NCBI RefSeq assembly: GCF_020859565.1
Contig: NZ_JAJHUO010000011.1
Location: 62,001 to 126,000, forward strand
Source of the DNA: Saccharothrix luteola
GTDB lineage: Bacteria; Actinomycetota; Actinomycetes; Mycobacteriales; Pseudonocardiaceae
DNA length: 64,000 bases
Reading direction: 5' to 3'
Below the pieces are notes generated by a model, which had not been told where the DNA came from, ran no database searches, and worked only from the letters and a program-made list of their open reading frames with translations. Within the stretch, counting starts at the first letter, position 1, and the number at the start of each line of letters is the position of its first letter. A program made the translations under genes and the position numbers. Below, piece by piece: positions 406-47,215 of the stretch.

Positions 406-1617
406 ATGCCGCCGCGGATCTCCGTCGTGATCCCCACCTACAACCGCGCCGAACTCCTCCGCCGCACCCTCGACAGCCTCACCGACCAAACCCTCCCGCC
501 CGACGACTACGAAGTCATCGTCGCCGACGACGGCTCGAACGACCACACCGCCGACGTCGTCAAGACCTTCCACGACCGCCTCCACCTGCACTACCACCAC
601 CAACCCGACCTCGGCCGCCGCGTCGCACACGCCCGCAACGCCGGCGCCCGCCACGCCACCGCGCCCGTCCTCGCCTTCCTCGACTGCGGCACCCTCGCCG
701 GACCCGACCTCACCCGCGCGCACGCCGACGCCCACACCGCACACCCCACCCTCAACCTCGGCTACGTCCACGGCTACCGCCCCTGGGACCCCACACCCGG
801 CCTCGCCGAAGCCATCGCCACCGGAACCCCGAAGCAGGTCCACCACGACTTCCAAGACCACCCCGGCTTCCGCGACATCCGCCACGAACCCCTCGCCGCC
901 GTCGACTTCCAACCCGACCGGCTCGCCTTCCCCTGGCTCTTCGCCTGGGGCATGAACCTCTCCGTGCGCAGCACCGACTTCGACGCCGTCGGCGGCTTCG
1001 ACGAACGCTTCGTCACCTGGGGCACCGAAGACATCGAACTCGGCTACCGCCTGCGCCGACACGGCCTCGCCACCCACTTCGACCTGAGCGCCTGGGCCGT
1101 CGAACCACCACACGAACGCGACACGGGGGAGATGCTCGCCAGCGCCAAGCGCACCATGCGGCAATTCCTCGACAAGACCCACGAGCCGGACGTCGAACTC
1201 GTCTGGGCCTCCCTGGAACGCGACGACCCGCTCATCGCCGAAGCCGAGCACCGCACCCTGACCACCTGGACCGACCAGGCCCGCGACCTCGACGTTCGAA
1301 CGGAGATCGACCAGCACACCGCCGACGCCGGGGGACCGGTGTGCGTCGTCGGCTGCGGCGACGACATCCCGGACACCCTGCCCGAGGGCAGCGTCCTGAT
1401 CGACTTCGACGCCGAACTCCTGGCGAAGGCCGGCGGCACGCACGCGCGACACCACGCGATCGGCCTGCAGATCCCGCTGCCGGACAACGCGGTGCAACGC
1501 GTCGTCGTCACCTCACGGCTCGACGGCATGTGGCGCACGTGGGGCGACACCATCACCGCGGAGGCCAGGCGCGTGGGCAGGGAAGCGCCCCGGACGCTCC
1601 CCGAACGTTCTACTTAA
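406..1617 (+). CDS. Family 2 glycosyltransferase
   Basis: 403 residues. The N-terminal GT-A domain starts with ISVVIPTYNRAELLRRTLDS and continues with the nucleotide-binding VADDGSND. An LDCG stretch sits where the metal-binding DxD is expected. Around residues 195-225, GGFDERFVTWGTEDIELGYR is the classic C-terminal half of the GT2/galactosyltransferase-C domain, with the ED pair that contains the catalytic base. It should transfer a sugar from a nucleotide donor in the cytoplasm; donor and acceptor are unknown. The last 110 or so residues form an extra region I do not recognise. The ATG is preceded by AAGGAG at 394-399. The gene stands alone. Confidence 0.85.
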   Translation: MPPRISVVIPTYNRAELLRRTLDSLTDQTLPPDDYEVIVADDGSNDHTADVVKTFHDRLHLHYHHQPDLGRRVAHARNAGARHATAPVLAFLDCGTLAGPDLTRAHADAHTAHPTLNLGYVHGYRPWDPTPGLAEAIATGTPKQVHHDFQDHPGFRDIRHEPLAAVDFQPDRLAFPWLFAWGMNLSVRSTDFDAVGGFDERFVTWGTEDIELGYRLRRHGLATHFDLSAWAVEPPHERDTGEMLASAKRTMRQFLDKTHEPDVELVWASLERDDPLIAEAEHRTLTTWTDQARDLDVRTEIDQHTADAGGPVCVVGCGDDIPDTLPEGSVLIDFDAELLAKAGGTHARHHAIGLQIPLPDNAVQRVVVTSRLDGMWRTWGDTITAEARRVGREAPRTLPERST

Positions 1618-2393
1618 CATAATGTAGATTATCGGCGTTACGGACAGCCTGGTCGGCAGGGGTCACGGACGCCGCGAGCCGCAGGTCGGCCACACCGGTG
1701 CGACGCGACGTTCACGCGTGACGTTCGCCCGCTCGCCGTCTCACGAACCGTCGTTGCCGCTGTCCGTCCGCACCGTCGTTCATCGGGACGACGCGGCCCA
1801 CGACCTACCGGTGGGAGCCCCCAGGTCGGGAAGGCCGGGACAGCAAAGTCGAGACAGCACCGAGTCGCCGGTGAGCCTGTCACCGTAGAAACGTCACAGT
1901 GACGGATCGCGGGTGGTGTCAGTGGATGTCGGACCAACGCGCATGCCGGGCGCACGTCGGCAGTTGATCATCGAGGCGGGCCGTCAGGGGTCCTCGGCGG
2001 GAACCCCGGTCCGGCTCGCCGGGCTCCCTGGACGCACGGCATCACGGTCGCGCGCATCGCACGCAAATGTGCGTTCCAGGGGCGGATCGGGCCGTCGACG
2101 AAGCCTTCGAGAGTGGCATCCCCCAGCCGGGGCCCGAACCCCTTCCGGATCCCCTTTTGATGGATAATCCCCATTATCCATCAGTCATGGGATTCTCCGT
2201 CGGTTGCCGGCACGAGCTGCGGATCTTGCGGCCCCTGATGTCGACCTGGACGCCCGGATCACCACCGCTCCACTGCACGAAGGGCTTCGCCGCCTGGGCC
2301 GACCACAGCCGTCACCTGCCCCGTTGAAGCGTCCCCGCGGGTAGCCCCCTCCCCCGAGGAAGACGGCGTGGCCCTCCCCTACCACGACACCTA
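1618..2393. other. Intergenic region without a convincing gene
   Basis: About 0.78 kb. Open frames exist on both strands, but none has a good ribosome binding site, a recognisable domain or a codon pattern like the neighbours. Visible signals are an AT-rich patch just after the glycosyltransferase stop (1612-1634), a 13-base palindrome CGTCACAGTGACG at 1892-1904, and the perfect hairpin at 2158-2183. It may be a decayed gene or a regulatory region. Confidence 0.5.
2158..2183. promoter_or_regulatory. Perfect AT-rich hairpin/palindrome
   Basis: Arms TGATGGATAAT (2158-2168) and ATTATCCATCA (2173-2183) match over all 11 bases with a CCCC loop. The arms are far more AT-rich than anything nearby. 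There is no poly-T tail and no adjacent gene end within 200 bases, so an operator or a small-RNA element is more likely than a simple terminator. Confidence 0.55.
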
Positions 2394-2857: not shown

Positions 2858-3477
2858 CAGGTGTCCTCCGGGTCCGGCGGTGGTGGTGCGAGGTAGTGGG
2901 TGACGGTGCGGTGGAGTGCGGGGCGGGGGTCGTGGGCGGGGTCGGCGTTGAGGAAGACGGCGTCGACGATCGCGAGGAGCCAGCGGGCGGTGTGGTCGGG
3001 GTCGAGGGCGGGGTCGACGGTTCCGTCCTGGATGCCGCGGGTGATGAGGTGTGCGAGTCCTTCGTGGAGGATGCGGGCGTTGCGGGCGACGATGTCGACG
3101 AGTTCGGGGTCGCGGCCTGCTTGGCGGAGGAGTTCGACGAGCAGGCCGGGTGCGCTGGGGTCTTGGGCGTCGGCGGCGAGTTCGGTGACGAGTGCGGTGA
3201 TGGCGGTGACGGGGTGCGGGGTGTGGGTGTGGCGGGCGACGAGGTCTTGGGATCGGGGTAGGTCGCGTTCGAAGACGGAGCGGAAGACGGCTTGTTTGTC
3301 GGGGAAGTAGTAGAAGACGGTGGCGGGGCTGAGTCCGGCGGCGCGGGCGATCTGGGCGACGGTGGTCTGGTCGAAGCCGTGGGCTGCGAAGAGGCGGGCG
3401 GCGGCGAGGGTGATGGCTTGTCGGCGTTGGGCGACCTGTTGGGTGTCGACGGTGCGTGCCACGGCGCGCCCTTTCAT
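2857..3477 (-). CDS. TetR/AcrR family transcriptional regulator
   Basis: 206 residues from ATG 3477. The N-terminal helix-turn-helix is clear: ITLAAARLFAAHGFDQTTV then IARAAGLSPATVFYYFPDK. The remainder is a helical ligand-binding domain. A TTG at 3492 in the same frame could also start it. I prefer the ATG, although neither has a good Shine-Dalgarno. A perfect inverted repeat covers the start, which points to autoregulation. It is transcribed away from the recombinase gene and is translationally coupled to the frameshifted hypothetical gene, so its likely target is its own operon. Confidence 0.87.
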   Translation of the reverse strand: MKGRAVARTVDTQQVAQRRQAITLAAARLFAAHGFDQTTVAQIARAAGLSPATVFYYFPDKQAVFRSVFERDLPRSQDLVARHTHTPHPVTAITALVTELAADAQDPSAPGLLVELLRQAGRDPELVDIVARNARILHEGLAHLITRGIQDGTVDPALDPDHTARWLLAIVDAVFLNADPAHDPRPALHRTVTHYLAPPPPDPEDT

Positions 3478-3493
3478 TGACTGATCGGTCAAT
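3476..3493. promoter_or_regulatory. Candidate TetR operator
   Basis: ATTGAC-TGATCG-GTCAAT has perfect 6-base arms around a 6-base centre. It lies across the TetR start codon and 60 bases upstream of the divergent recombinase start. The size and position fit a TetR-family operator that controls its own gene and possibly the recombinase. Confidence 0.6.
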
Positions 3494-3554
3494 CGAACTA
3501 TCCTCCGGGGGCGGTCCCCCGGTTTTGTCGGTGGTGTTTGGTAGGAAGATCGAC

Positions 3555-4526
3555 ATGCTGGTGCTTGCCGCTCAGGAGTCGTTCTTCCTCGCTCGTCGGC
3601 CGCGGAAGGATTCGCCGCACACGACGGCGGCGTACCGGCGCGACCTGGCGGGTGTCACGGCGTTGTTGTCGGAGGTGACGGGTACTCCCCCGGAGTCGCT
3701 GGTGATGGCGGAGTTGACGGCGCGGAACCTGCGTGAGGCGTTCGGGGTGTTCGCGGACTCGCACGCGAAGTCGTCGGTGTTGCGGGCGTGGTCGACGTGG
3801 AACCAGTTCCTGACGTTCTGCGTGGCGGAGGAGTTGGTGGCGGGCAATCCGATGGGTGCGGTGGCGCGGCCGAAGACCCCTCCCCTGGTGCCGAAGCCGT
3901 TGCGGGGTGAGGACACGCCGGAGCGGTTGTTGGCGGCGGCGGCGGAGGGTGCGCGTCAGGCTCGTGATCCGTGGCCGGAGCGGGATGTGCTGGTGTTGGC
4001 GTTGGGGTTGGTGGCGGGGTTGCGGTCGGCGGAGATGCGGACGTTGACGCACGGGTCGGTGGTGGGTCGGCCGGGTGAGCGGCGGCTGCACGTGGCGGGG
4101 AAGGGCAATCGGGATCGGTCGGTGCCGATCGAGCCGGCGATGGACCGGATCATCGAGCAGTACGTGGTGTCGTGTCGGCGGCGTTTTCCGCGGGGGCGGT
4201 TCGATCGGGGGTCGGCGTTGTTGCGTGATCGGCATGGCGAGCCGATCGGGCGTGGTGGGTTGGAGTACTTGGTGCGGTCGTGCTTCCGGTGGGCGGGGTT
4301 GCACGACCGGGTGCCGTCGGGGGCGAACCTGCACGCGTTGCGGCACACGTTCGCGACGCGGTTGGCGGAGGACGGCGCGACGGCGTCGGAGATCATGGCG
4401 TTGTTGGGGCACGCGTCGTTGGCGACGTCGCAGAACTACATCGAGGCGACGGCGCGGGAGCGGCGGGCGGCGGTGGCGGGCAATCGGACGTACGCGTCGT
4501 TGGCGCGGTTGCCGCGCGGGGAGTAG
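3555..4526 (+). CDS. Tyrosine recombinase (XerC/D-like integrase)
   Basis: 323 residues. An N-terminal SAM-like core-binding domain (about 1-105; TTAAYRRDLAGVTALLSEV, AWSTWNQFLTFC) is followed by a complete catalytic domain: Arg157 in GLRSAEMR, Lys183 in AGKGNRDRSVPI, His260 and Arg263 in HALRHTFATR, His286 in LLGHASL, and nucleophile Tyr295 in SQNYIEA. It should cut and rejoin DNA at a specific site through a 3'-phosphotyrosine. The ATG at 3555 has GGTAGGAAG upstream; an earlier in-frame start would overlap the TetR operator. No att duplication, tRNA or phage gene is visible, so a chromosomal XerC-type role and an orphan integrase both remain possible. Confidence 0.9.
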   Translation: MLVLAAQESFFLARRPRKDSPHTTAAYRRDLAGVTALLSEVTGTPPESLVMAELTARNLREAFGVFADSHAKSSVLRAWSTWNQFLTFCVAEELVAGNPMGAVARPKTPPLVPKPLRGEDTPERLLAAAAEGARQARDPWPERDVLVLALGLVAGLRSAEMRTLTHGSVVGRPGERRLHVAGKGNRDRSVPIEPAMDRIIEQYVVSCRRRFPRGRFDRGSALLRDRHGEPIGRGGLEYLVRSCFRWAGLHDRVPSGANLHALRHTFATRLAEDGATASEIMALLGHASLATSQNYIEATARERRAAVAGNRTYASLARLPRGE

Positions 4527-8693: not shown

Positions 8694-9588
8694 GGCGGTG
8701 GTGCGGGTGGAGGGTCGTCGGTTGAAGCTGACGAACCTGGACAAGGTGCTGTACCCGGAGGTGGGGTTCACCAAGGCCGAGGTGATCGACTACTACACGC
8801 GGATCGCGCCGGTGTTGTTGCCGCACGTGGCGGGCCGGCCGATGACGGTGCGGCGGTATCCGGACGGGGTGGACGGGAAGTCGTTCTTCGAGAAGAACGC
8901 GCCGTCGCACGCGCCGGAGTGGGTGCGGACGGTGCGGGTGGGGACGCCGGGGTCGTCGCGGGGCGCGGAGTACGCGGACTTCGTGGTGGTGGACGACCTG
9001 GCGACGGTGGTGTGGTTGGCGAACCTGGCGGCGTTGGAGCTGCACGTGCCGCAGTGGGCGGTGGGTGCGCGGGGTGGGCGGCACTCCCCCGATCTGCTGG
9101 TGTTCGACCTGGATCCGGGTGAGCCGGCGACGGTGGTGCAGTGCTGTCGGGTGGCGTGCCGGGTGCGGGAGGTGCTGGAGGGTGACGGGTTGGTGCCGGT
9201 GGTGAAGACGTCGGGGTCGAAGGGGTTGCAGGTGTACGCGGCGGTGTCGGTGTCGTCGGCGGAGCGGACGTCGGAGTACGCGAAGGGTGTGGCGCAGCGG
9301 TTGGCGCGGGAGTGGCCGGAGGAGGTGGTGTGGCGGATGGCGAAGGCGCAGCGGACGGGGAAGGTGTTGATCGACTGGTCGCAGAACAACCCGGCGAAGA
9401 CGACGGTGGCGCCGTACTCGCTGCGCGCCCGGCCGCGGCCGTCGGTGTCGACGCCGGTGTCGTGGGACGAGGTGGAGGCGTGCCGGGTGGTGGAGGACCT
9501 GGTGTTCCTGGCCGACGAGGTGCGGGAGCGGGTGGACGAGGGGGGTGACCTGTTCGCGGTGGGTGAGCCGTCGCCTCTCCCCCGCTGA
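8680..9588 (+). CDS. LigD-type NHEJ polymerase/primase domain protein
   Basis: 302 residues from GTG 8680, with GGGGAGG 6 bases upstream; it overlaps the ligase stop by 14 bases, and GTG 8683 is also possible. It begins with KLTNLDKVLYPEVGFTKAE, typical of LigD Pol domains. The catalytic acidic pair is in LLVFDLDPGE (Asp143, Asp145), and IDWSQNN follows near the end. This archaeo-eukaryotic primase-fold enzyme adds (ribo)nucleotides to fill gaps at Ku-bound ends. Translational coupling with the ligase gene suggests that the two are made together and act as a split LigD. Confidence 0.93.
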   Translation: MVTGEAVVRVEGRRLKLTNLDKVLYPEVGFTKAEVIDYYTRIAPVLLPHVAGRPMTVRRYPDGVDGKSFFEKNAPSHAPEWVRTVRVGTPGSSRGAEYADFVVVDDLATVVWLANLAALELHVPQWAVGARGGRHSPDLLVFDLDPGEPATVVQCCRVACRVREVLEGDGLVPVVKTSGSKGLQVYAAVSVSSAERTSEYAKGVAQRLAREWPEEVVWRMAKAQRTGKVLIDWSQNNPAKTTVAPYSLRARPRPSVSTPVSWDEVEACRVVEDLVFLADEVRERVDEGGDLFAVGEPSPLPR

Positions 9589-9623
9589 CCACTCGGCCCG
9601 GCCCGGTGCGGGAGGATCCGCGG

Positions 9624-12623
9624 GTGCGGTTCGGGGTGTTGGGTCCGATGGTGGTGCGGCGTGCGGACGGGACGGAGGTCCGGGTCGGTGGGCCGCGGTT
9701 GCGGGCGTTGTTGGCGGTGTTGGTGGTGGACGCGGGCCGGGTGGTGGGTGTCGACCGGCTGAGCGAGGCCCTGTACGGGCCGTGTCCGCCGGCGGGGGTG
9801 GGCAACGCGATCCAGTCGCAGGTGTCGCGGCTGCGGTCGGTGCTCGACGTGGAGGTGGAGCGGTCGGCGGCCGGGTACCGGCTGGTGGTGGATCCGGGTG
9901 AGGTGGACGCGCTGCGGTTCGAGGAGCTGGTGGCGCGGGGGTTGCCGGGTGAGGCGCTGGCGCTGTGGCGTGGTCCGGCGTTGCGGGACGTGGGTGACGC
10001 GCCGTTCGCGGCGGTGTGCGCGGCGCGGTGGGAGGAGTTGCGGCTGCGGGCGGTGGAGGACCACGAGGGCGCGTCGGTGGGGTTGTTGCGGGAGTTGGTG
10101 GCGGCGCACCCGACGCGGGAGCGGTTGGTGGCGCGGTTGGTGCGGGTACTGCACCGGGAGGGGCGGCAGGCGGAGGCGTTGGGGCTGTTCGAGCGGACGC
10201 GCCGGTTGTTGGCCGAGGAGCTGGGCGCGGACCCCTCCCCCGGGTTGCTGGCGGCGCACGGCGAGGTGGTGCGGGGTGAGGGGCCGGTGGCGCGGCGGGT
10301 GTTGCCGGCGCAGTTGACGAGTTTCGTGGGCCGTGAGGAGGAGGTGCGGCTGGTCGGGGCGGCGTTGGGGGCGTCGCGGTTGGTGACGTTGACGGGTCCG
10401 GGTGGTGCGGGCAAGACGCGGTTGGCGGTGGAGGCCGCGGCCCGGGAGCCGGGTGAGGTGTTCTTCGTCGACCTGGCGCCGTTGGCGGTGGGCGGGGACG
10501 TGCCGCGGGCGGTGGTGTCGGCGTTGGGGTTGCGGGAGGACGGGATGCGGCCGGTGACGGCGCCGGTGGCGCGGTTGGTGGCGGCGTTGCGGGACCGGCC
10601 GGTGCTGGTGGTGTTGGACAACTGCGAGCACGTGGTGGACGACGCGGCGGCGTTGGCGGCCGGGTTGTTGGTGCGGTGCGCGGGGTTGCGGGTGTTGGCG
10701 ACGTCGCGGGAGGCGTTGGGGGTGACCGGGGAGGTGGTGCGGCCGGTGCCGCCGTTGGAGTCGGGTGGGGTGGGTTCGGCGGCGGTGCGGTTGTTCGCGG
10801 ACCGGGCGGTGGCGGTGAACCCGTCGTTCCGGCTGGACCCGGGTGCGGCGGAGCTGGTGGTGGGGATCTGCCGGGCGTTGGACGGGTTGCCGTTGGCGAT
10901 CGAGCTGGCGGCGGCGCGGGTGCGGTCGTTGCCGGTGGCGGAGGTCGCGGCGCGGTTGGGCGACCGGTTCCGGTTGTTGTCGCGGGGCAGTCGGGCGGCG
11001 GTGGCGCGGCATCGGACGTTGCACGCGGTGGTGGAGTGGAGTTGGGGGTTGCTGGATGACGACGAGCGGGTGGTGGCGCGGCGGTTGACGGTGTTGCGGG
11101 GCGGGGCGACGTTGGCCGCCGCAGCGGCGGTGTGCGGGGTGGCGGGGGTGGACGAGGTGTTGCCGTCGTTGGCGGACAAGTCGTTGGTGGAGGTGTCCGG
11201 GGACCGGTACCGGATGTCGGAGACGATCCGGGCGTTCTGCGCGGCCCGGTTGGCGGAGTCGGGTGAGGAGCAGGGGGTGTTGCGGGCGCACGCGGAGCAC
11301 TTCGCGCAGGTGGCGGCCGAGGCGGCGCCGCACCTGTACGGGGCGGGGCAGCTGGTGTGGTTGGGGCGGTTGGCGGCGGAGCACGAGAACCTGACGGCGG
11401 CGGTGCGGTGGGCGGCGGGGCGTGATCACGGGTTGGCGTTGCGGTTGGCGGCGGACCTGGGGTGGCCGTGGTGGTTGCGGGGGTTGCGCGCGGAGGGCGC
11501 GTCGTTGGCGGCGGAGGTGGTGCGGGCGGTGGGTCCGACGCCGCCCGCCGGGTTGGCCGAGGAGTACCTGTTGTGCCTGGTGAACGCGTCGTCGACGGGT
11601 GCGGCGGGGTTGCCGGGGTCGCCGTCGCCGCGCGATCCGCTGCCGGCGGGGCTCGCCGGTCCGCCGGCGCGGCCGTACCTGACGGTGCTGTGGGGCATGG
11701 CGCACGGGGTGCCGAAGCTGGACCTGGCGGAGATGGAGGCGTTGCGGGATCGGCTGCTGGGGTCGGATCCGTGGAGTCGGGCGCTGGGCCGGTTGGGGTC
11801 GGGGATGGGGTTGCAGTACTCGGGGCGGGTGCGGGAGGCGTGGGAGGAGCACGCGGCGGCGTTGGCGGGTTTCCGGGCGGTGGGTGAGCGGTGGGGCATG
11901 GCGTTGGCGTTGGCGCAGTTGGCCGAGTTGGCGCGGGCGGCCGGTCGGGTGGCGGAGGCGATGGGGTTCCTGGACGAGGCGTTGGCGTTGTCGCGGTCGT
12001 TCGGGGCGACCGAGCACACGGCGAGCCTGCTGTGCCGCCGGTCGGAGTGGGCGTGCCAGTCCGGTGACCTGGACGGCGCGGCGGCCGACGTGGAGGAGGC
12101 GGCGGTGTTGGCGCGGTCGCAGGGCACGGTGGAGACGTTGGCGCAGGCGTGGCTGGGTGCGGCGGAGGTGGCGCGGCGGCGCGGTGACCTGGCGGGTGCG
12201 CGGCGGTGGTGCGAGGAGGCGTTGCGGGTGTGCCCGCGGGGTTGGTTCGGGCCCGAGGAGGTGCGGGCGTCGATACTGGTGGCGGTGGGCCGGGTGGAGT
12301 CGGCGTGCGGTGACCGCGGGGCGGCGGTGCGGGCGTGGGCGTCCGCGGCGGCGTCGGCCCGGGAGTGGGGCAACCAGGTGGTGTCGGCGCGGGTGGTGGA
12401 GGCGCACGCGGAGTTGGCGGTGGCGGAGGGTGACGGGGTGCGGGCGGCGTTGCTGGTGGGCGCGGCGCGGGGGTTGCGCGGCGAGGTGGCGGTGGTGGAT
12501 CCGGAGGTGCTCGCGGTGGAGGCGGCGGCGCGGGCGGTGCTGGGTGACGCGGTGTTCGGGGAGGTGTCGGCGCGGGGCGCCGGGTTGGGGGCGGACGAGG
12601 TGGCCGCCCTGCTCGACGCGTGA
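9624..12623 (+). CDS. AfsR/SARP-type STAND transcriptional regulator
   Basis: 999 residues. N-terminal winged helix (about 1-90, VRFGVLGPMVVRR), bacterial transcriptional activation domain (about 95-240, ending EELGADPSPGLLAAHGEVVR), NB-ARC ATPase with Walker A GPGGAGKT (258-265) and Walker B-like VLVVLDNCEH, then TPR-like helices to the C-terminus. Such proteins bind direct repeats upstream of target promoters and use ATP as a switch; many control secondary metabolism. The target is unknown, and no biosynthetic cluster lies beside it. GTG 9624 has GGAGG 8 bases upstream; GTG 9606 is an alternative. It starts 36 bases after the polymerase gene and could be read through from it. Confidence 0.92.
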   Translation: MRFGVLGPMVVRRADGTEVRVGGPRLRALLAVLVVDAGRVVGVDRLSEALYGPCPPAGVGNAIQSQVSRLRSVLDVEVERSAAGYRLVVDPGEVDALRFEELVARGLPGEALALWRGPALRDVGDAPFAAVCAARWEELRLRAVEDHEGASVGLLRELVAAHPTRERLVARLVRVLHREGRQAEALGLFERTRRLLAEELGADPSPGLLAAHGEVVRGEGPVARRVLPAQLTSFVGREEEVRLVGAALGASRLVTLTGPGGAGKTRLAVEAAAREPGEVFFVDLAPLAVGGDVPRAVVSALGLREDGMRPVTAPVARLVAALRDRPVLVVLDNCEHVVDDAAALAAGLLVRCAGLRVLATSREALGVTGEVVRPVPPLESGGVGSAAVRLFADRAVAVNPSFRLDPGAAELVVGICRALDGLPLAIELAAARVRSLPVAEVAARLGDRFRLLSRGSRAAVARHRTLHAVVEWSWGLLDDDERVVARRLTVLRGGATLAAAAAVCGVAGVDEVLPSLADKSLVEVSGDRYRMSETIRAFCAARLAESGEEQGVLRAHAEHFAQVAAEAAPHLYGAGQLVWLGRLAAEHENLTAAVRWAAGRDHGLALRLAADLGWPWWLRGLRAEGASLAAEVVRAVGPTPPAGLAEEYLLCLVNASSTGAAGLPGSPSPRDPLPAGLAGPPARPYLTVLWGMAHGVPKLDLAEMEALRDRLLGSDPWSRALGRLGSGMGLQYSGRVREAWEEHAAALAGFRAVGERWGMALALAQLAELARAAGRVAEAMGFLDEALALSRSFGATEHTASLLCRRSEWACQSGDLDGAAADVEEAAVLARSQGTVETLAQAWLGAAEVARRRGDLAGARRWCEEALRVCPRGWFGPEEVRASILVAVGRVESACGDRGAAVRAWASAAASAREWGNQVVSARVVEAHAELAVAEGDGVRAALLVGAARGLRGEVAVVDPEVLAVEAAARAVLGDAVFGEVSARGAGLGADEVAALLDA

Positions 12624-30374: not shown

Positions 30375-30779
30375 TCACCGGGAGTGGTCGGTGGGTTTCT
30401 TGGGGGCGACGACGGTGCCGCGGGCGCGGGTGACGACGAGGGGCGGGTCGAGGACGTCGGCGGCCGAGGGGCCGCGGTCGGGGGCGCTGCGGCACACGAC
30501 GCGGGCTTCGAAGTCGATCTCGCGGGAGCGGGTGCCGACGCGGACGAGGGTGGCGGTGGCCTCGATGACGTCGCCGGCGTGGACGGGTGCGAGGAACTCG
30601 ACGGCGGAGTAGGCGGCGAAGAGCCCTTCGTCGCCGTCGGTGCGGATGAGCAGTTCGGTGGCGACGTCGCCGAACAGGCCGAGCCCGTAGGCGCCGTCGA
30701 CGAGGGCGCCGCCGTAGTGGGCGTGGGAGTGGGGCACGTAGCGGCGGTGGGTGACGGTGAATCCCTCGGTGAGGCTCAC
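30375..30779 (-). CDS. kal: 3-aminobutyryl-CoA ammonia-lyase
   Basis: 134 residues from GTG 30779, overlapping the kamE stop by 4 bases. The small hot-dog-fold protein has [39 protein letters not shown] and [20 protein letters not shown], the pattern of Kal enzymes from lysine fermenters. It removes ammonia from 3-aminobutyryl-CoA to give crotonyl-CoA, the last dedicated step of the pathway. It is the final gene of the kdd operon. Confidence 0.88.
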
Positions 30780-31558
30780 GCGTTCTCCTTGCGTGCGGCG
30801 GTGGTCCGCGCGGTCGTGGTGTGGGTGGTGGTTCTGGTCCGGATGGCGTGGGTGAGGTAGCTGGCGACCTCGCCGGGGGTGGTGCCGCGGCCGAAGACGC
30901 GGTCCACGCCCAGTTCGGCCGCCATGAGCGGGTCGAAGCGGGGTCCGCCGGCGATGAGCAGCGGTCGCCGCTCCCCCATGGCCTCGCGGAACGCGGCGGA
31001 CATCTCGCGGGTGTTGAGGATGTGCGCGTCGCGTTGGGTGACGACCTGGGAGACGAGGACGGCGTCGGCTTTCTCGGCGCGGGCGCGGCGGACGAGGTCG
31101 GGCACGGAGACCTGCGCGCCGAGGTTCACGACCTTGAGCTCGCGGTAGTACTCGAGGCCTTTCTCACCGGCGAAGCCCTTGATGTTGAGGATGGCGTCGA
31201 TGCCGACGGTGTGGGCGTCGGTGCCGATGCAGGCGCCGACGACGACGAGTTTGCGGCGCAGCAGCTTCTTGAGGGTGGTGTTGATCTCGGCGGGTGGCAG
31301 CAGCGGGTATTCGCGTTCGACGACGCGCACGTCGTCGAGGTCGACGATGTGGCGGACGGAGCCGTAGACGACGAAGAAGGTGAAGTCGTCGCCGATGGGG
31401 TGGGAGTGCACGACCATGGCGGGGTCGATGCCCATCTTGTTCGCCAGTTGCTGGGCGGCGCCGTCGGCGTGGGGTCCGGCGGGGATGGGCAGGGTGAACG
31501 AGGTCTGCACCATGCCGTCGCCGGTGGTGTCGCCGTAGGGGCGGACGTGGCGCTTCAC
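30776..31558 (-). CDS. kamE: Lysine 5,6-aminomutase beta subunit
   Basis: 260 residues from GTG 31558, overlapping the kamD stop by 4 bases. The B12-binding motif DxHxxG is present as [13 protein letters not shown] (Asp114, His116, Gly119), followed by a Rossmann-like cobalamin domain ([44 protein letters not shown]). In the clostridial enzyme the PLP-binding Lys144 is on this subunit; Lys142 in RELKVVNLG aligns well. With KamD it migrates the terminal amino group of beta-lysine to C5, giving 3,5-diaminohexanoate. Confidence 0.94.
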
Positions 31559-33123: not shown

Positions 33124-33128
33124 CGGGT

Positions 33129-33932
33129 TCACTCCTGTTCTTCGGGGCGGTTCTGGGCGCGGATCTCCGCTCGTGCGCGCACGAGTTGCGGGTACACGGC
33201 GGAGGGGGAGATGCCGAGGGTCGCCGCGACCTCGGCCACGGACAGTCCTTCGATCTCGCGCAGCACGTAGACCGCGCGCAGGCCGGGCCGCAGCCGGTCG
33301 AGGGCCCGGGTCTCGGCCTCGGTGGGAGCGTGGGGGCGCGTGCTGGGCACGGTCGGCAGTGGGACCGGTGTGGCGCGTCGGAGTCCGCGGGTCAGTTCGA
33401 GGATCTCGTTGAGCACGTCGCGGTCGGAGCGGACCGGCCCGTGGCCGGGTGCGGTGGCGCGGAAGTCCGCCACGGTGGCGGTGAAGTCGTCCCACTCGCG
33501 GTCGAGGAACCTGCCGAGGCGTGGCGCGGCGAGGGGTTCGGGCAGTGCGGCGTTGACCGCGTCGAGCAGGGCGAGGACGTCGGTCTTCTCCCCCGCGTCG
33601 ACGGCCTGGAACTGGCTGAGCGGCCCGGTGACGTCGGTCTTGGCGAGATCCAGCAGCAGCGGGATCACCTTGGCCTGGCCGACGCTCTTGGAGAGGGCGC
33701 CTGCTTCGAAGTTGATCCACGGCGAGTGCTGGTTGGCCGCGGACAGCACGACGATCCCGAAGCTGGTGCCGTCGAGCGCGCCGCCGAGTTCGGCCATGCT
33801 CAGCGAGCCCTTGGCGATGTCCTTGTCCGACATCCACGGTTTGACGGCCTGGACGACCAGCTGCAGCCATTCCCGCAGGAACAGCGCGAACCGCCGTTCG
33901 GCCTCCCCCGACCAGGAGAGGAAGACCTTCAC
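33129..33932 (-). CDS. TIR-domain protein fused to a sigma-70 region 4 helix-turn-helix
   Basis: 267 residues from GTG 33932. Residues 1-150 are a bacterial TIR-type domain: VKVFLSWSGEAERRFALFL, KPWMSDKDIAKGS, VVLSAANQHSPWINFEAGAL with Glu76 at the usual catalytic position of TIR NADases, and GPLSQFQAVD. A linker of about 55 residues leads to a clear sigma-70 region 4/ECF-like HTH (207-258): LDRLRPGLRAVYVLREIEGL, SVAEVAATLGISPSAVYPQL, VRARAEIR. No region 2 is present, so it cannot be a complete sigma factor. It sits inside the lysine operon, one base after the amidohydrolase gene and five before kamD. Role unknown; a regulator sensing NAD+/nucleotides or metabolic state is possible. Confidence 0.85.
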   Translation of the reverse strand: MKVFLSWSGEAERRFALFLREWLQLVVQAVKPWMSDKDIAKGSLSMAELGGALDGTSFGIVVLSAANQHSPWINFEAGALSKSVGQAKVIPLLLDLAKTDVTGPLSQFQAVDAGEKTDVLALLDAVNAALPEPLAAPRLGRFLDREWDDFTATVADFRATAPGHGPVRSDRDVLNEILELTRGLRRATPVPLPTVPSTRPHAPTEAETRALDRLRPGLRAVYVLREIEGLSVAEVAATLGISPSAVYPQLVRARAEIRAQNRPEEQE

Positions 33933-33933
33933 C

Positions 33934-35523
33934 TCACGCCTCCCTCTCGTAGACGGTGCGGCCGCGCAGGACGGTGCGCAGGCACGTCGGGGCGGGGCCG
34001 TCCAGGGCGGGCAGGGCGGGGACGCGGGAGCGCGGGTCGGTGGACCAGCGCTGCACGCGGCTGTCGGGGGCGGCGACCTCCAGCTCCCCCGCCTCCCACA
34101 CGGCGTAGGTGGCGGGCGCGCCGGGTTGCAGGGTGCCGGTGACGCCGTCGTCGACGCCGGCGGCGCGCCAGCCGCCGCGGGTGTGGGCGGTGAACGCGGC
34201 ACGCGGGGAGAGGCCGTGGCCGTCGGTGCGGTGGTGCACGGCGGCCTTGATCGCGGCCCAGGGGTCGACGGCGGTGACGGGGGCGTCGGAGCCCAGGGCG
34301 AGGATCATGCCGGCGGCGGCGAGGCGGGAGAACGGGTTGAGCGCGGTCCCCCGCTCGACGCCGAGGCGCTGGGCGTACATGCCGTCCGCCCCGCCCCATT
34401 CGCGGTCGAACAGGGGTTGCACGGAGGCGACGACGCCCCAGGAGGCCAGGCGCGCGGCCTGCTCGCCGGTGATCATCTCGAGGTGTTCGAGGCGGTGCCT
34501 GCGGGCCGCCAGGGCGGGGACGCCGACGGTCGCGGCGGCTTTGGCGAAGCCGTCGACGACGGCGGCGACGGCGGCGTCGCCGATGACGTGGAACCCGCCC
34601 TGGATGCCGGCGCGGGTGCAGGTGATCAGGTGCTCGGCGACGGCGTCGGCGTCGAGGTAGAGGGCGCCGGTGGTGTCGGCGTCGGCGTAGGGCTCGCACA
34701 GGGCGGCGGTGCGGGAGCCGAGCGCGCCGTCGACGAACAGGTCGCCGGCCAGGCCGCGCACGGGCAGGTCTATCGGGTCGGGGCCGCCCCAGTAGCCGGC
34801 GACGTCGAGCAGGTCGGTGGCGAGCAGGTCGGCGAGGTCGTCGCGGCTGGAGATGTCGGGTCCGGCGCATTCGTGCACCGACGCGATGCCGCGTGACGCG
34901 GCGTGCCGCAGGAACGCCTGCTGGGCGGCGCGGCGCCGGTGCACGGGGATGGCGTCCTTCGCGGCGCGGCGCACGTGGTGGTGCGCGGCGCGCGAGAGGG
35001 GCCCGTCGGGGTGCCAGCCGTCGGCGTCGCGGGCGTCGGGGGCGAGGTCGAGCAGCGCGGTGGACGCCAGGGCGGAGTGCACGTCGATGCGGGAGAGGTA
35101 GACCCGGGCGCCGCGGGCGGCGTCGTCGAGTTCGGCGCGGGTCGGGGGCCGGTTCTCCGGCCAGCGTGTCTCGTCCCAGCCGTGTCCCCAGATCAGCGGG
35201 CCCTCCGCCGCGCGCACGGCGTCGAGCAGGTCCGTCAGCGACCGGCAGCCGGTGAGGTCCAGGCCGGTGAGCAGCAGCCCGGCGGAGGTGGCGTGCACGT
35301 GGGCGTCGACGAACGCGGGGGCGACGAACGCGCCGTCCAGGTCGACGACCTCGGCGTCGGGGTGCAGGGCGCGGCCCGCGCCGTCCTGGCCCAGCCACAC
35401 CACGGTGCCGTCGGTGATCGCCATCGCGGTGGCGTCGGGAGCGGTCGGGGAGTGGATCCGTCCACCCACGAGCAGGCGCGTCGACGGGGGCGTCGACGCC
35501 GGGTCGCCGTTCACTGTAGTCAC
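33934..35523 (-). CDS. YtcJ-like amidohydrolase
   Basis: 529 residues from GTG 35523, overlapping the kdd stop by 4 bases. The metal-dependent amidohydrolase fold of the YtcJ/exoenzyme-regulatory branch is shown by APAFVDAHVHATS (HxH), LIWGHGWDETRWPENRPPTR, a middle GIASVHECAGPDIS, GGFHVIGDAAVAAVVDGFA, RHRLEHLEMI and LALGSDAPV (metal Asp). It should hydrolyse a C-N bond of an amide, lactam or related compound. Being second gene of the operon, it may act on a lysine-derived cyclic or acylated compound; that is inference. Confidence 0.87.
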   Translation of the reverse strand: MTTVNGDPASTPPSTRLLVGGRIHSPTAPDATAMAITDGTVVWLGQDGAGRALHPDAEVVDLDGAFVAPAFVDAHVHATSAGLLLTGLDLTGCRSLTDLLDAVRAAEGPLIWGHGWDETRWPENRPPTRAELDDAARGARVYLSRIDVHSALASTALLDLAPDARDADGWHPDGPLSRAAHHHVRRAAKDAIPVHRRRAAQQAFLRHAASRGIASVHECAGPDISSRDDLADLLATDLLDVAGYWGGPDPIDLPVRGLAGDLFVDGALGSRTAALCEPYADADTTGALYLDADAVAEHLITCTRAGIQGGFHVIGDAAVAAVVDGFAKAAATVGVPALAARRHRLEHLEMITGEQAARLASWGVVASVQPLFDREWGGADGMYAQRLGVERGTALNPFSRLAAAGMILALGSDAPVTAVDPWAAIKAAVHHRTDGHGLSPRAAFTAHTRGGWRAAGVDDGVTGTLQPGAPATYAVWEAGELEVAAPDSRVQRWSTDPRSRVPALPALDGPAPTCLRTVLRGRTVYEREA

Positions 35524-36536
35524 GTCCGGTGAGTCTGCCGGTGCTCGAACAGGGCCCGCACGGCAGGTTCGCCGCGCAGCAGGTCCAGGGCGAACGCGGC
35601 GTGACCGGGCACGTAGCCGTTGCCGACGAGCATCTCCACGTCGGCGGCGAGCCCTTCGGCGCCCAGCGCGGCGGCGGGGAACGAGGTGGCCATGGAGAAG
35701 AACACGACGGTGCCGCCGTCGGCGGTGGCCAGGATCGCGCCGTGCTCGCAGCCGGGCACGTCCACGCACACCACGGTCACGTCCACGCGGTCGCCGACCG
35801 CCTCGGCCACGGCGACGGGGTCGCGGGCGTCGGCGACGACCACGGTGTCGGCCAGGCCCGCGGCGCGGACGGCGTCGGCCTCGCGCGCGGTGGGGACGAG
35901 GGCGACGAGCCGGGACGCGCCGGCGCGGCGGGCGGCGGCCAGCGACAGCGACCCCGACTTGCCGCCGCCGCCCAGGACCAGCACCGACGGCGCGGGGCGG
36001 CGGCGCACGACCCGGTCGGTCAGCGCGGGCGCGCCGCACACGTCCAGCACCGACAGGGCGAGCTGCTCGGGCAGGTCGTCGGGCAGCACGGCGGCGATGG
36101 AGCGGCCGAACAGCACCGCGGTGCCCTCGCACGGCGCCTGCTCGTCGGTCCCGTCCCACGCGGCGAGGCCGTCGGTGATGCGCAGCGGCGTGAGGGTGAG
36201 CGAGACCAGCGTCGCGATCCGGTCGCCGACGCGCAGGCCCAGCGGCGAGTCGGGGCCGACCTCGCGGACGGCGCCCAGCAGCATGCCGCCCGATCCGGTG
36301 ACGGGGTTCTGCATCTTGCCGCGGGCGGCGACGATGTCCAGCACTGCGCGGCGGACGCCAGCGACGCCGTGCTCCTCGCGCAGCTGCCGGTAGGAGGCGG
36401 CGTCGAGGTTGAGCCGGGAGACGTCGACCAGGACCTCGTCGGGTCCGCACACGGGGGTGGCGTCCAGCCGGTGGGCCTGCTGCGGCAGCACCCCGGCGGG
36501 TTCGAGGACGCGGTGCAGACCGTACGGCGACGTCAT
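35520..36536 (-). CDS. kdd: L-erythro-3,5-diaminohexanoate dehydrogenase
   Basis: 338 residues from ATG 36536 with GGAGGATTTCC upstream. The Kdd family is recognised by SPYGLHRVLEPAGVLPQQAH, RLNLDAASYRQLREEHG, GKMQNPVTGSGGMLLGAVRE and VGDRIATLVSLTLTPL, followed by a Rossmann segment SVLVLGGGGKSGSLSLAAAR. It oxidatively deaminates 3,5-diaminohexanoate with NAD(P)+ to 5-amino-3-oxohexanoate. First gene of a six-gene operon (kdd, amidohydrolase, TIR fusion, kamD, kamE, kal) with gaps of 5 bases or less. Confidence 0.93.
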   Translation of the reverse strand: MTSPYGLHRVLEPAGVLPQQAHRLDATPVCGPDEVLVDVSRLNLDAASYRQLREEHGVAGVRRAVLDIVAARGKMQNPVTGSGGMLLGAVREVGPDSPLGLRVGDRIATLVSLTLTPLRITDGLAAWDGTDEQAPCEGTAVLFGRSIAAVLPDDLPEQLALSVLDVCGAPALTDRVVRRRPAPSVLVLGGGGKSGSLSLAAARRAGASRLVALVPTAREADAVRAAGLADTVVVADARDPVAVAEAVGDRVDVTVVCVDVPGCEHGAILATADGGTVVFFSMATSFPAAALGAEGLAADVEMLVGNGYVPGHAAFALDLLRGEPAVRALFEHRQTHRT

Positions 36537-45229: not shown

Positions 45230-45724
45230 TCAGGTCAACTCCGGCCGAGTCGACGGCGACTCCGGCCGCACATCCACCACATCACCCTCGACCACCGCAC
45301 CGTCCACCACCACACCACCCGCCATCGGGTGCTGCCCGTACCGCACGTTCAACGCCATCGCCCGCTCCCGCTCCTCCGCACGCCGCGCGATTCGCCTGCT
45401 CATCAACCGCCGCGTCGGCGGGAACAGCAGGAACAACCCCACCACGTCGCTCACGAACCCCGGCACGATGATCAAGAACGCCGCCGCCGCGATCAACACA
45501 CCGTCCGCGAGCTCCTGGTGCGGCGCACGACGCGTCCGCACCGCCTCCGAGAACGCCGCCACGGTCCGCGCGCCCTCACGACGCAGCAACACCGAACCCA
45601 CCACCCCGCCCAGCACCAGCAGCCCCAGGGTCGGCAACAGACCCCACGCCCCGAACGCCGCCACCAGAGCGGTGACCTCCACAGCCAAGCCCACCAGCAG
45701 TACCGCGAACACACGCATACCCAT
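45230..45724 (-). CDS. fxsA: FxsA family membrane protein
   Basis: 164 residues from ATG 45724 (ATG 45718 possible). FxsA pattern: VFAVLLVGLAVEVTALVAAF, LLPTLGLLVLGGVVGSVLLR, a polar middle, and ADGVLIAAAAFLIIVPGFVS with DVVGLFLLFPPTRRLMSRRI; the C-terminus is charged and cytoplasmic. FxsA of E. coli lessens phage F exclusion by PifA; the role in actinobacteria is unknown. Divergent from kamA. Confidence 0.9.
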   Translation of the reverse strand: MGMRVFAVLLVGLAVEVTALVAAFGAWGLLPTLGLLVLGGVVGSVLLRREGARTVAAFSEAVRTRRAPHQELADGVLIAAAAFLIIVPGFVSDVVGLFLLFPPTRRLMSRRIARRAEERERAMALNVRYGQHPMAGGVVVDGAVVEGDVVDVRPESPSTRPELT

Positions 45725-45756
45725 CCCAACGCACGAACGACCCGAAACGCTCCCTG

Positions 45757-45771
45757 CCGTAATATTTACGG
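45757..45771. promoter_or_regulatory. Perfect palindrome in the fxsA-kamA gap
   Basis: CCGTAA-TAT-TTACGG, perfect 6-base arms, AT-rich centre, 56 bases upstream of kamA. Possible operator or part of a promoter. Confidence 0.45.
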
Positions 45772-45791
45772 CCAACCGGCCATCTGGCAGC

Positions 45792-45802
45792 ATATCTTCA
45801 CG
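45792..45802. promoter_or_regulatory. ATATCTTCACG motif upstream of kamA
   Basis: ATATCTTCACG lies 25-35 bases before the kamA start; an identical copy precedes kdd at 36571-36581. Candidate shared control site. Confidence 0.5.
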
Positions 45803-45826
45803 CCACTCGACCGACAGGGAGCATGG

Positions 45827-47215
45827 ATGACTGCGCTGCACGAGGTCACCCCCACGCACCACAGGGCTGACCTCCAGCCCTACACCTACGTGCGCCAAGA
45901 GCTGGTCGAACCCGACTGGCGCCGCTTCCCCGGCTGGCGCGACACCACCGACGCCCAATGGCGCGACGCCCAGTGGCAACGCGCCAACTGCGTCAAGAAC
46001 CCCAAACAACTCCGCACCCTCATGGGCGACCTGCTCACCGACCGGTTCTACGACGACCTGGCCGCCGACCAGCAGCAATCCGCCACCATGTCCATGCTCG
46101 TGCCACCCCAGATGCTCAACACCATGGCACCCGACGCCCCGCTCGACCCCGAGGCGTTCACCGAAGCCTTCTTCGCCGACCCCATCCGCCGCTACATGAT
46201 CCCCGTGCGATCCGACCGCGACCCGGACTGGCCCAGCCACCCCCACTCCGCCCGCGACTCGCTGCACGAAGCCGAGATGTGGGTCGTCGAAGGCCTCACC
46301 CACCGCTACCCCACCAAAGTCCTCGCCGAACTCGTCTCCACCTGCCCCCAGTACTGCGGCCACTGCACCCGCATGGACCTCGTCGGCAACTCCACCCCCC
46401 AGGTCCAGAAGCACAAGCTCGCGCTCAAACCGGTCGACCGCCAAGAACAGATGATCGACTACCTCAAGCGCACACCCGGCGTCCGCGACGTCGTCGTCTC
46501 CGGCGGCGACGTCGCCAACGTCCCCTGGCCCCAACTCGAGTCGTTCCTCATGCGACTGCTCGACATCGACACCGTCCGCGACGTCCGCCTCGCCACCAAA
46601 GCCCTCGCCGGACTACCCCAGCACTGGCTGCAACCCAAAGTCGTCGAAGGCCTCGAACGCGTCGCCCGCACCGCCGGCCGCCGCGGCGTCAACCTCGCCA
46701 TCCACACCCACGTCAACCACGTGCAGACCGTCACGCCGCTCGTCGCCGAAGCCGCCCGCACCGCCCTCGAAGTCGGCGTCCGCGACGTCCGCAACCAGGG
46801 CGTGCTCATGAAGGGCGTCAACGCCACCCCGGAAGACCTGCTCGACCTCTGCTTCGCGCTCCAAGGCGAAGCGAACATCCTGCCGTACTACTTCTACATG
46901 TGCGACATGATCCCCAACGCCGAGCACTGGCGCGTCGCCGTCTGGGAAGCCCAGGAACTCCAGCACGCGATCATGGGCTACCTGCCCGGCTACGCCACCC
47001 CGCGCATCGTCTGCGACGTCCCCTACGTCGGCAAGAGGTGGGTCCACCAGCTCCACGAGTACGACCGCGAACTCGGCATCTCCTACTGGACCAAGAACTA
47101 CCGCACCGGCATCGAACTCGAAGACCCCGAAGCCCTCGACCGCCGCTACCCCTACTACGACCCGATCTCCACCCTGCCCGAAACCGGCCGCCGCTGGTGG
47201 TCCGAGCAGCCGTAG
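45827..47215 (+). CDS. kamA: Lysine 2,3-aminomutase-type radical SAM enzyme
   Basis: 462 residues from ATG 45827 (GACAGGGAGC upstream). The radical-SAM cluster motif CX3CX2C is CPQYCGHC (Cys173, Cys177, Cys180), preceded by LHEAEMWVVEGLTHRYPTKV and followed by RDVVVSGGDVANV. Later segments ILPYYFYMCDMIPNAEHWRV and VCDVPYVGKRWV would contain the PLP-binding Lys region. It belongs to the KamA/aminomutase family; with kamDE nearby, conversion of L-lysine to L-beta-lysine is the best assignment. CPQYCGHCTRMD differs from the usual CSMYCRHCTRR, so the substrate is not certain. A Rho-independent terminator follows. Confidence 0.88.
   Translation: MTALHEVTPTHHRADLQPYTYVRQELVEPDWRRFPGWRDTTDAQWRDAQWQRANCVKNPKQLRTLMGDLLTDRFYDDLAADQQQSATMSMLVPPQMLNTMAPDAPLDPEAFTEAFFADPIRRYMIPVRSDRDPDWPSHPHSARDSLHEAEMWVVEGLTHRYPTKVLAELVSTCPQYCGHCTRMDLVGNSTPQVQKHKLALKPVDRQEQMIDYLKRTPGVRDVVVSGGDVANVPWPQLESFLMRLLDIDTVRDVRLATKALAGLPQHWLQPKVVEGLERVARTAGRRGVNLAIHTHVNHVQTVTPLVAEAARTALEVGVRDVRNQGVLMKGVNATPEDLLDLCFALQGEANILPYYFYMCDMIPNAEHWRVAVWEAQELQHAIMGYLPGYATPRIVCDVPYVGKRWVHQLHEYDRELGISYWTKNYRTGIELEDPEALDRRYPYYDPISTLPETGRRWWSEQP

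What the first reader, a model, noticed from the sequence alone, without database searches (positions are those of the whole stretch)
33129..33932. TIR domain fused to a sigma-70 region 4 helix-turn-helix, inside a lysine-degradation operon
The protein joins a TIR-type domain (SWSGEAERR, SPWINFEAGAL with Glu76) to an ECF-like region 4 (RLRPGLRAVYVLREIEGL, VAEVAATLGISPSAVY) and has no sigma region 2. Bacterial TIR domains are known mostly as NAD+-consuming defence enzymes. Placement between an amidohydrolase and kamD, with gaps of 1 and 5 bases, ties it to a catabolic operon. It could be a regulator that couples NAD+ or nucleotide state to the pathway; Kdd, the first gene product, uses a nicotinamide cofactor. 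This is the best candidate here for an undescribed arrangement.
Basis: partly seen in the sequence, partly recalled or inferred. Interest (0 to 1): 0.72.

Follow-up and report, generated by a model that had tools for sequence, protein, structure and literature searches.

The report
TIR–sigma4 protein in lysine operon
A gene that joins an immunity-type TIR enzyme domain to a piece of a sigma factor really does sit inside a lysine-breakdown operon, but related genomes suggest it is a swappable, easily lost immunity-type gene parked there rather than a regulator of lysine breakdown.

Summary
Window 33129-33932 (-) encodes 267 aa: a TIR_2 domain (aa 2-114, Glu76) joined to sigma-70 region 4 (aa 208-255), no region 2, 1 base after an amidohydrolase gene and 5 bases before kamD. 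The proposed role as kam regulator is not supported. Of 102 kam operons in the family, four hold an intact TIR here, two a truncated one, 96 none; only this one has region 4. In two near-identical operons (flanking genes 97-99% aa identical, dS 0.02-0.07) the slot TIR is 64% identical with dS 0.65, and identity steps at the ORF ends. TIR plus linker matches the TIR of a published anti-phage system of phage AC1. The region-4 recognition helix has Tyr-Pro where 41 and 39 of 46 ECF copies have Lys/Arg and Ser. Best reading: a swappable defence-type TIR effector hosted by a catabolic operon, whose tail was replaced here by a region-4 module that more likely meets a protein than promoter DNA.

The parts
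33129..33932 (-). gene of the TIR–sigma region 4 protein, 267 aa, GTG start
   Evidence: open frame and start shared with homologues
33591..33929 (-). TIR_2 domain, aa 2-114
   Evidence: Pfam PF13676 E 2.1e-10; PADLOC TIR-TM E 7.4e-48 over aa 1-183
33705..33707 (-). Glu76, putative catalytic residue in WINFEAG
   Evidence: motif in 30 of 32 homologues, missing in the two truncated slot copies; aligns with AbTIR, an NAD+ hydrolase
33387..33431 (-). linker stretch aa 168-182 (RSDRDVLNEILELTR), shared by many homologues
   Evidence: alignment A2, R168 and R182 invariant in 13 rows
33168..33311 (-). sigma-70 region 4, aa 208-255
   Evidence: Pfam PF08281 E 7.3e-13; ungapped alignment with sigma-E region 4, entry 2h27
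33186..33194 (-). Tyr247-Pro248-Gln249 in the recognition helix, where sigma-E has Arg-Ser-Arg
   Evidence: 46 ECF copies compared
33124..33140 (-). end of the gene, which doubles as the leader (AGGAGTGA) of kamD
   Evidence: leader comparison
33934..35433 (-). amidohydrolase gene, upstream border of the slot (start not fixed)
   Evidence: found next to kamD in all 101 loci and in L016
31555..33123 (-). kamD, lysine 5,6-aminomutase alpha subunit, downstream border of the slot
   Evidence: NF052384, 686.5 bits, cut-off 600
30776..31558 (-). kamE
   Evidence: NF052385, 344.6 bits, cut-off 280
30375..30779 (-). kal
   Evidence: NF052388, 193.9 bits, cut-off 160
35520..36536 (-). kdd (start not fixed)
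   Evidence: NF052381, 252.2 bits, cut-off 200

Best explanation
The gene is a defence-type TIR effector that occupies a variable slot between two genes of a lysine-breakdown operon. Shown: TIR and linker belong to the sequence family of the TIR of the phage AC1 anti-phage system; in the kam slot this TIR is present, truncated or absent among relatives, and in one pair of operons it is far more divergent than its flanks; homologues keep TIR and linker but differ in their tails; only this copy has sigma region 4. Inferred: when the tail meets its trigger the TIR consumes NAD+ (or makes an ADP-ribose signal) and stops the infected cell; the operon keeps the gene expressed; alleles are exchanged by recombination in the conserved flanking genes; the region-4 tail replaced an earlier short tail and acts as a docking or sensing module for a protein of the transcription machinery more likely than as a promoter-binding domain.
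For: PADLOC TIR-TM match E 7.4e-48 and the same model at 2.7e-118 for the TIR of phage AC1, whose two neighbours match the partner models; published protection by the three cloned AC1 genes (PMC9122126, passages). Relatives alone in a lambdoid phage, a prophage-like stretch and small plasmids. Slot: 4 intact, 2 truncated, 96 without, of 102; at least 5 changes on the tree of flanking genes. G143/G219: flanks dS 0.019-0.069, TIR dS 0.652, step at the ORF ends. Tails vary faster than TIR in the 3 clearest of 5 pairs. Glu motif kept in 30 of 32. Recognition-helix changes.
Against: No partner TM genes here, so the AC1 system as such is absent. No NADase or anti-phage test. Region 4 is known from one genome, so selection on it cannot be measured. 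The excess of TIR dS is strong in one pair only; in own/G143, own/G219, own/G319 and G143/G319 the TIR dS (0.51-1.13) is 1.2-fold or more above the highest flank. The spacers called scars hold no recognisable TIR beyond the kamD leader. Six of 11 family copies lie in the kam slot, which a chance landing does not explain without shared descent or recombination.
Confidence: 0.58

Rival explanations
1. A regulator of the lysine pathway: region 4 binds promoter DNA or RNA polymerase at kam promoters and the TIR senses or consumes NAD+ to tune the operon.
For: Position and spacing inside the operon, leader shared with kamD; 6 of 11 family copies in this slot; region 4 retains its core.
Against: Missing from 96 of 102 operons; region 4 absent from the other three intact slot copies; different history from the flanks; Tyr-Pro in the recognition helix; no region 2.
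Confidence: 0.08
2. Dispensable cargo on its way out: the TIR has lost its use in this lineage and the region-4 tail is a chance capture without function.
For: In the group of 12 operons around it the other 11 have a truncated TIR or a spacer; truncated copies in G088 and G017; one genome only has the tail.
Against: The frame is intact over 267 codons, Glu76 is kept, the region-4 core scores like working ECF factors although its best copies in the genus are only 53-56% identical, and intact slot TIRs show dN below dS.
Confidence: 0.2
3. Anti-sigma sponge: the tail mimics a sigma factor, as PhyR does, and a host anti-sigma protein gates the TIR.
For: Weak matches to PhyR models (NF006623 E 3.2e-5; PF22233 E 0.0042, below cut-off); loss of DNA-contact residues fits protein binding.
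Against: PhyR has both sigma regions (recalled); matches to ordinary ECF models are better; no anti-sigma gene was noticed in the operon, though none was searched for.
Confidence: 0.07

Closest known systems
TIR of the three-gene anti-phage system of P2-like phage AC1 (PADLOC TIR-TM with 1TM-TIR and 2TM-TIR; PMC9122126)
   Same: Same TIR-plus-linker family over aa 1-183, with the Glu motif.
   Different: No membrane partner genes, other tail, host operon instead of a phage hotspot.
TIR fused to a PcrA/UvrD tudor domain in genome G471 (L185)
   Same: Same TIR family with a known tail domain; that tudor domains of this kind bind RNA polymerase is recalled.
   Different: Other tail; no match to the kam queries in the 1.5-kb flanks held.
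Saccharothrix yanglingensis TIR in the same slot (L118, genome G143)
   Same: Same slot, 62-63% identical over aa 1-201 or 1-189.
   Different: Short tail, no region 4.
TRADD-N systems with TIR or ECF-like HTH effector domains (PMC8195603, passages)
   Same: TIR and ECF-like HTH appear in one kind of conflict system.
   Different: There they are alternatives at one end of a TRADD-N protein; here they are fused. TRADD-N was not tested for here beyond the Pfam scan.
ECF sigma factors (SigE family)
   Same: Region 4 core.
   Different: No region 2; recognition helix altered.

Membership tests
PADLOC TIR-TM family | match to the TIR-TM profile | tested here: met
   E 7.4e-48, but only positions 1-190 of 293
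2TM-1TM-TIR system of phage AC1 | two membrane-protein partner genes beside the TIR | tested here: not met
   neighbours are the amidohydrolase and kamD; the whole genome was not scanned for the partners
2TM-1TM-TIR system of phage AC1 | protection against phage | not testable with these tools
   needs experiments
TIR NAD+ hydrolases | catalytic Glu in place | tested here: met
   Glu76 aligns with AbTIR; 30 of 32 homologues keep the motif
TIR NAD+ hydrolases | NAD+ cleavage | not testable with these tools
   needs an assay
ECF sigma factor | region 4 | tested here: met
   PF08281 E 7.3e-13
ECF sigma factor | region 2 | tested here: not met
   no region-2 model among the Pfam matches up to E 10
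ECF sigma factor | Lys/Arg-Ser at the DNA-facing positions of the recognition helix | tested here: not met
   Tyr-Pro here; Lys/Arg in 41 and Ser in 39 of 46 copies (5 are second copies of one gene); that they face DNA is recalled
Core gene of the kam operon | regular presence with kam genes | tested here: not met
   intact in 4 of 102 family operons; 0 of 25 loci examined outside the family

The most novel reading that the evidence does not exclude
The region-4 tail is an integrated bait: a copy of the part of sigma factors that docks on RNA polymerase and that some phage anti-sigma proteins seize (recalled), fused to a TIR effector so that phage takeover of host transcription sets off NAD+ destruction, much like the integrated decoys of plant TIR immune receptors. 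The UvrD-tudor tail of a cousin would be a second polymerase-facing bait, and the kam operon a natural slot in which immune alleles are swapped.
Probability: 0.15. Interest if true: 0.86.

Novelty: new variant of a known kind. Interest (0 to 1): 0.55.

Why it matters
If the reading is right, defence-type genes can live as swappable cassettes inside an ordinary catabolic operon, outside prophages and defence islands, and so escape searches that rely on defence neighbourhoods. The tail change suggests that a bacterial TIR effector can take part of the transcription machinery as its sensor, which can be tested by swapping tails in laboratory strains.

Tried and rejected
Rejected: region 4 as a chance match in high-GC sequence (48-51 bits; third-position GC is high in this frame). 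Rejected: a regular kam gene. Rejected: recent capture of region 4 from an ECF gene of the 25 genus genomes; the best copies are only 53-56% identical. Searched for and not found: a second TIR–region 4 fusion. The tail query hit only the window's own locus among 34 TIR loci, 32 of them distinct. Of 11 plasmid records with a match (of 72,556) and 4 phage records (of 50,697) none covers 80% of the protein; 4 and 2 of these were fetched. TIR matches were few: 11 of 390 family, 11 of 397 order and 4 of 396 phylum genomes, own genome included. The scan of species genomes by short patterns gave 7 loci.

Led nowhere: viral contigs (27 pattern hits, no relative); TIR remains in the spacers (only the kamD leader, a short chance-like match in L100, and the real truncated copy in L021); papers on kam genes in actinobacteria (listing only); the Actinobacteria defence paper PMC10482375 (passages: its three 'TIR' hits mean terminal inverted repeats).

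Full report
What is there. The ORF at 33129-33932 on the minus strand is open and starts with GTG at the residue where homologues start. Pfam finds TIR_2 at aa 2-114 and Sigma70_r4_2 at aa 208-255, both above cut-off. The gaps to the amidohydrolase stop and the kamD start are 1 and 5 bases. kdd, kamD, kamE and kal pass their NCBIfam cut-offs; a KamA-like gene in the ORF 45329-47215 on the other strand is below the cut-offs of its models.

The slot. kamD was found in 102 of 390 family genomes. For all 102 the stretch from the amidohydrolase stop to the kamD start was read (101 loci; G017). Intact TIR genes are in four: own, G143 and G219 of the same genus, G319 of another genus. Truncated ones are in two: G088 (95 aa) and G017 (144 aa, TIR similarity ends near aa 67). 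The other 96 have none; 77 of them have a gap under 36 bases and 19 a longer spacer. In the order, 51 of 190 genomes have kamD, five of them in the family. Of the 46 outside, 25 came as loci; none matched the TIR queries, and 20 have an amidohydrolase match upstream.

Tails. G143 and G219 end in a short tail (SGPV..LRDP..T..INF); the G088 copy keeps the same pattern; G319 has another tail; only the window's copy has region 4. The simplest account is that the short tail is older in the genus and region 4 replaced it. This rests on three sequences.

History of the slot. On a tree of the flanking genes the presence of TIR, truncated copies included, changes at least 5 times (such counts cannot tell gain from loss). 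The own operon lies in a weakly drawn group of 12 (SH-aLRT 87) whose other 11 rows have a truncated TIR or a spacer of 28-241 bases; of the nine other TIR-less rows of the genus clade six have 2-3 bases and three 14-22. The spacers carry no recognisable TIR beyond the kamD leader, so calling them scars is inference. The kamD leader (AGGAGTGA type) is mostly the end of whatever precedes kamD, TIR, amidohydrolase or spacer; the G319 TIR ends in the leader seen in its TIR-less relatives.

The sharpest result is G143 against G219. Six operon genes are 96.9-98.8% identical in protein with dS 0.019-0.069; the TIR between them is 63.8% identical with dS 0.652 and dN 0.271. In 60-base steps identity is 0.95-1.00 up to the TIR, 0.58-0.82 through it, 1.00 at its very end, and 0.85-1.00 in kamD. 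Raised dS points to replacement by a divergent allele rather than to selection alone. In the other four pairs with two TIRs the excess is smaller: own/G143 0.506 against 0.292-0.433, own/G219 0.572 against 0.292-0.415, own/G319 1.125 against 0.568-0.899, G143/G319 1.078 against 0.430-0.737. No gene in these comparisons had an in-frame stop.

What the TIR is. TIR plus linker matches PADLOC TIR-TM at E 7.4e-48. The TIR of phage AC1 matches the same model at 2.7e-118 and its two neighbours match 2TM-TIR and 1TM-TIR. The paper on that phage reports that the three cloned genes protect E. coli C against lambda, LF82_P8 and P2 (PMC9122126, passages only). Relatives sit alone between antitermination Q and holin genes in phage mEp390 and in a prophage-like stretch of an E. 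coli record, and on small plasmids. In the family 11 of 390 genomes have a match at E 1e-12: six in the kam slot, five elsewhere with no match to kam queries in the flanks held. In the order 11 of 397 and in the phylum 4 of 396 match at E 1e-15, own genome included. The Glu motif is present in 30 of 32 homologues and missing in the two truncated slot copies. By profile, Glu76 aligns with the motif of AbTIR, named an NAD+ hydrolase.

Constant TIR, variable tail. L129/L130 share 155 of 185 positions in TIR plus linker and 19 of 71 in the tail; L175/L178 128 of 190 against 27 of 81; L187/L188 110 of 184 against 11 of 50. Two other pairs differ little: L183/L184 152 of 186 against 47 of 66, L126/L127 117 of 184 against 24 of 40. 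Of ten homologues scanned with Pfam one has a known tail, PcrA/UvrD tudor.

The region-4 part. It aligns with sigma-E region 4 of entry 2h27 without gaps. In the recognition helix it has Tyr-Pro-Gln where sigma-E has Arg-Ser-Arg. In 46 ECF copies (30 best of the own genome, 7 more of it, 9 of other genus genomes; 5 are second copies of one gene) the first position is Lys/Arg in 41, the second Ser in 39 and Pro in none; Gln at the third is common (21). That these positions contact the -35 element is recalled from the sigma-E structure paper, which is not held. So ordinary promoter reading looks unlikely; folding was not tested.

How it most likely works. Inferred: a TIR enzyme held inactive until the tail meets its trigger, then consuming NAD+; hosted and co-expressed by the kam operon; swapped between strains by recombination in the conserved flanking genes. 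The region-4 tail would be the sensor, facing RNA polymerase or a protein that binds region 4. There is no evidence yet for the trigger; it is a proposal.

Print. Searches for TIR with sigma factor, region 4 or anti-sigma listed no paper on such a fusion; most listed papers were not opened. PMC8195603 (passages) describes TIR and ECF-like HTH as alternative domains of TRADD-N proteins. PMC7075850 (passages) notes diverse architectures in prokaryotic TIR groups. The searches cover open-licence papers only.

Noticed in passing
L185 (genome G471), 1027-2082 minus strand: The same TIR family fused to a PcrA/UvrD tudor domain (PF21196 E 6.6e-13), a second tail linked with transcription (recalled).
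   Followed up: partly
L175 (phage mEp390) 3001-3819; L178 (E. coli record CP099174) 3001-3816: A lone TIR gene of this family, facing the other way, between antitermination Q and holin genes; looks like a defence cargo gene.
   Followed up: no
L177, 14.4-kb plasmid pGT2 of Acidithiobacillus ferriphilus: Three genes annotated as TIR proteins in the 6.6 kb shown of one small plasmid.
   Followed up: no
L016 (genome G017), about 8770-9205 minus strand: Truncated slot TIR whose frame goes on into an unrelated tail that resembles a SHOCT domain by eye (recalled label).
   Followed up: no
L066 (genome G030), spacer of 265 bases before kamD: Spacer without TIR whose translations look repetitive.
   Followed up: no
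L015 (genome G113) 9120-10019: TIR relative outside the kam slot with third-position GC 0.56 among neighbours at 0.76-0.95, suggesting recent arrival.
   Followed up: partly
L129 and L130 (genomes G202, G201): The same TIR site between two conserved genes in two genomes, TIR 84% identical but tails 27%.
   Followed up: partly
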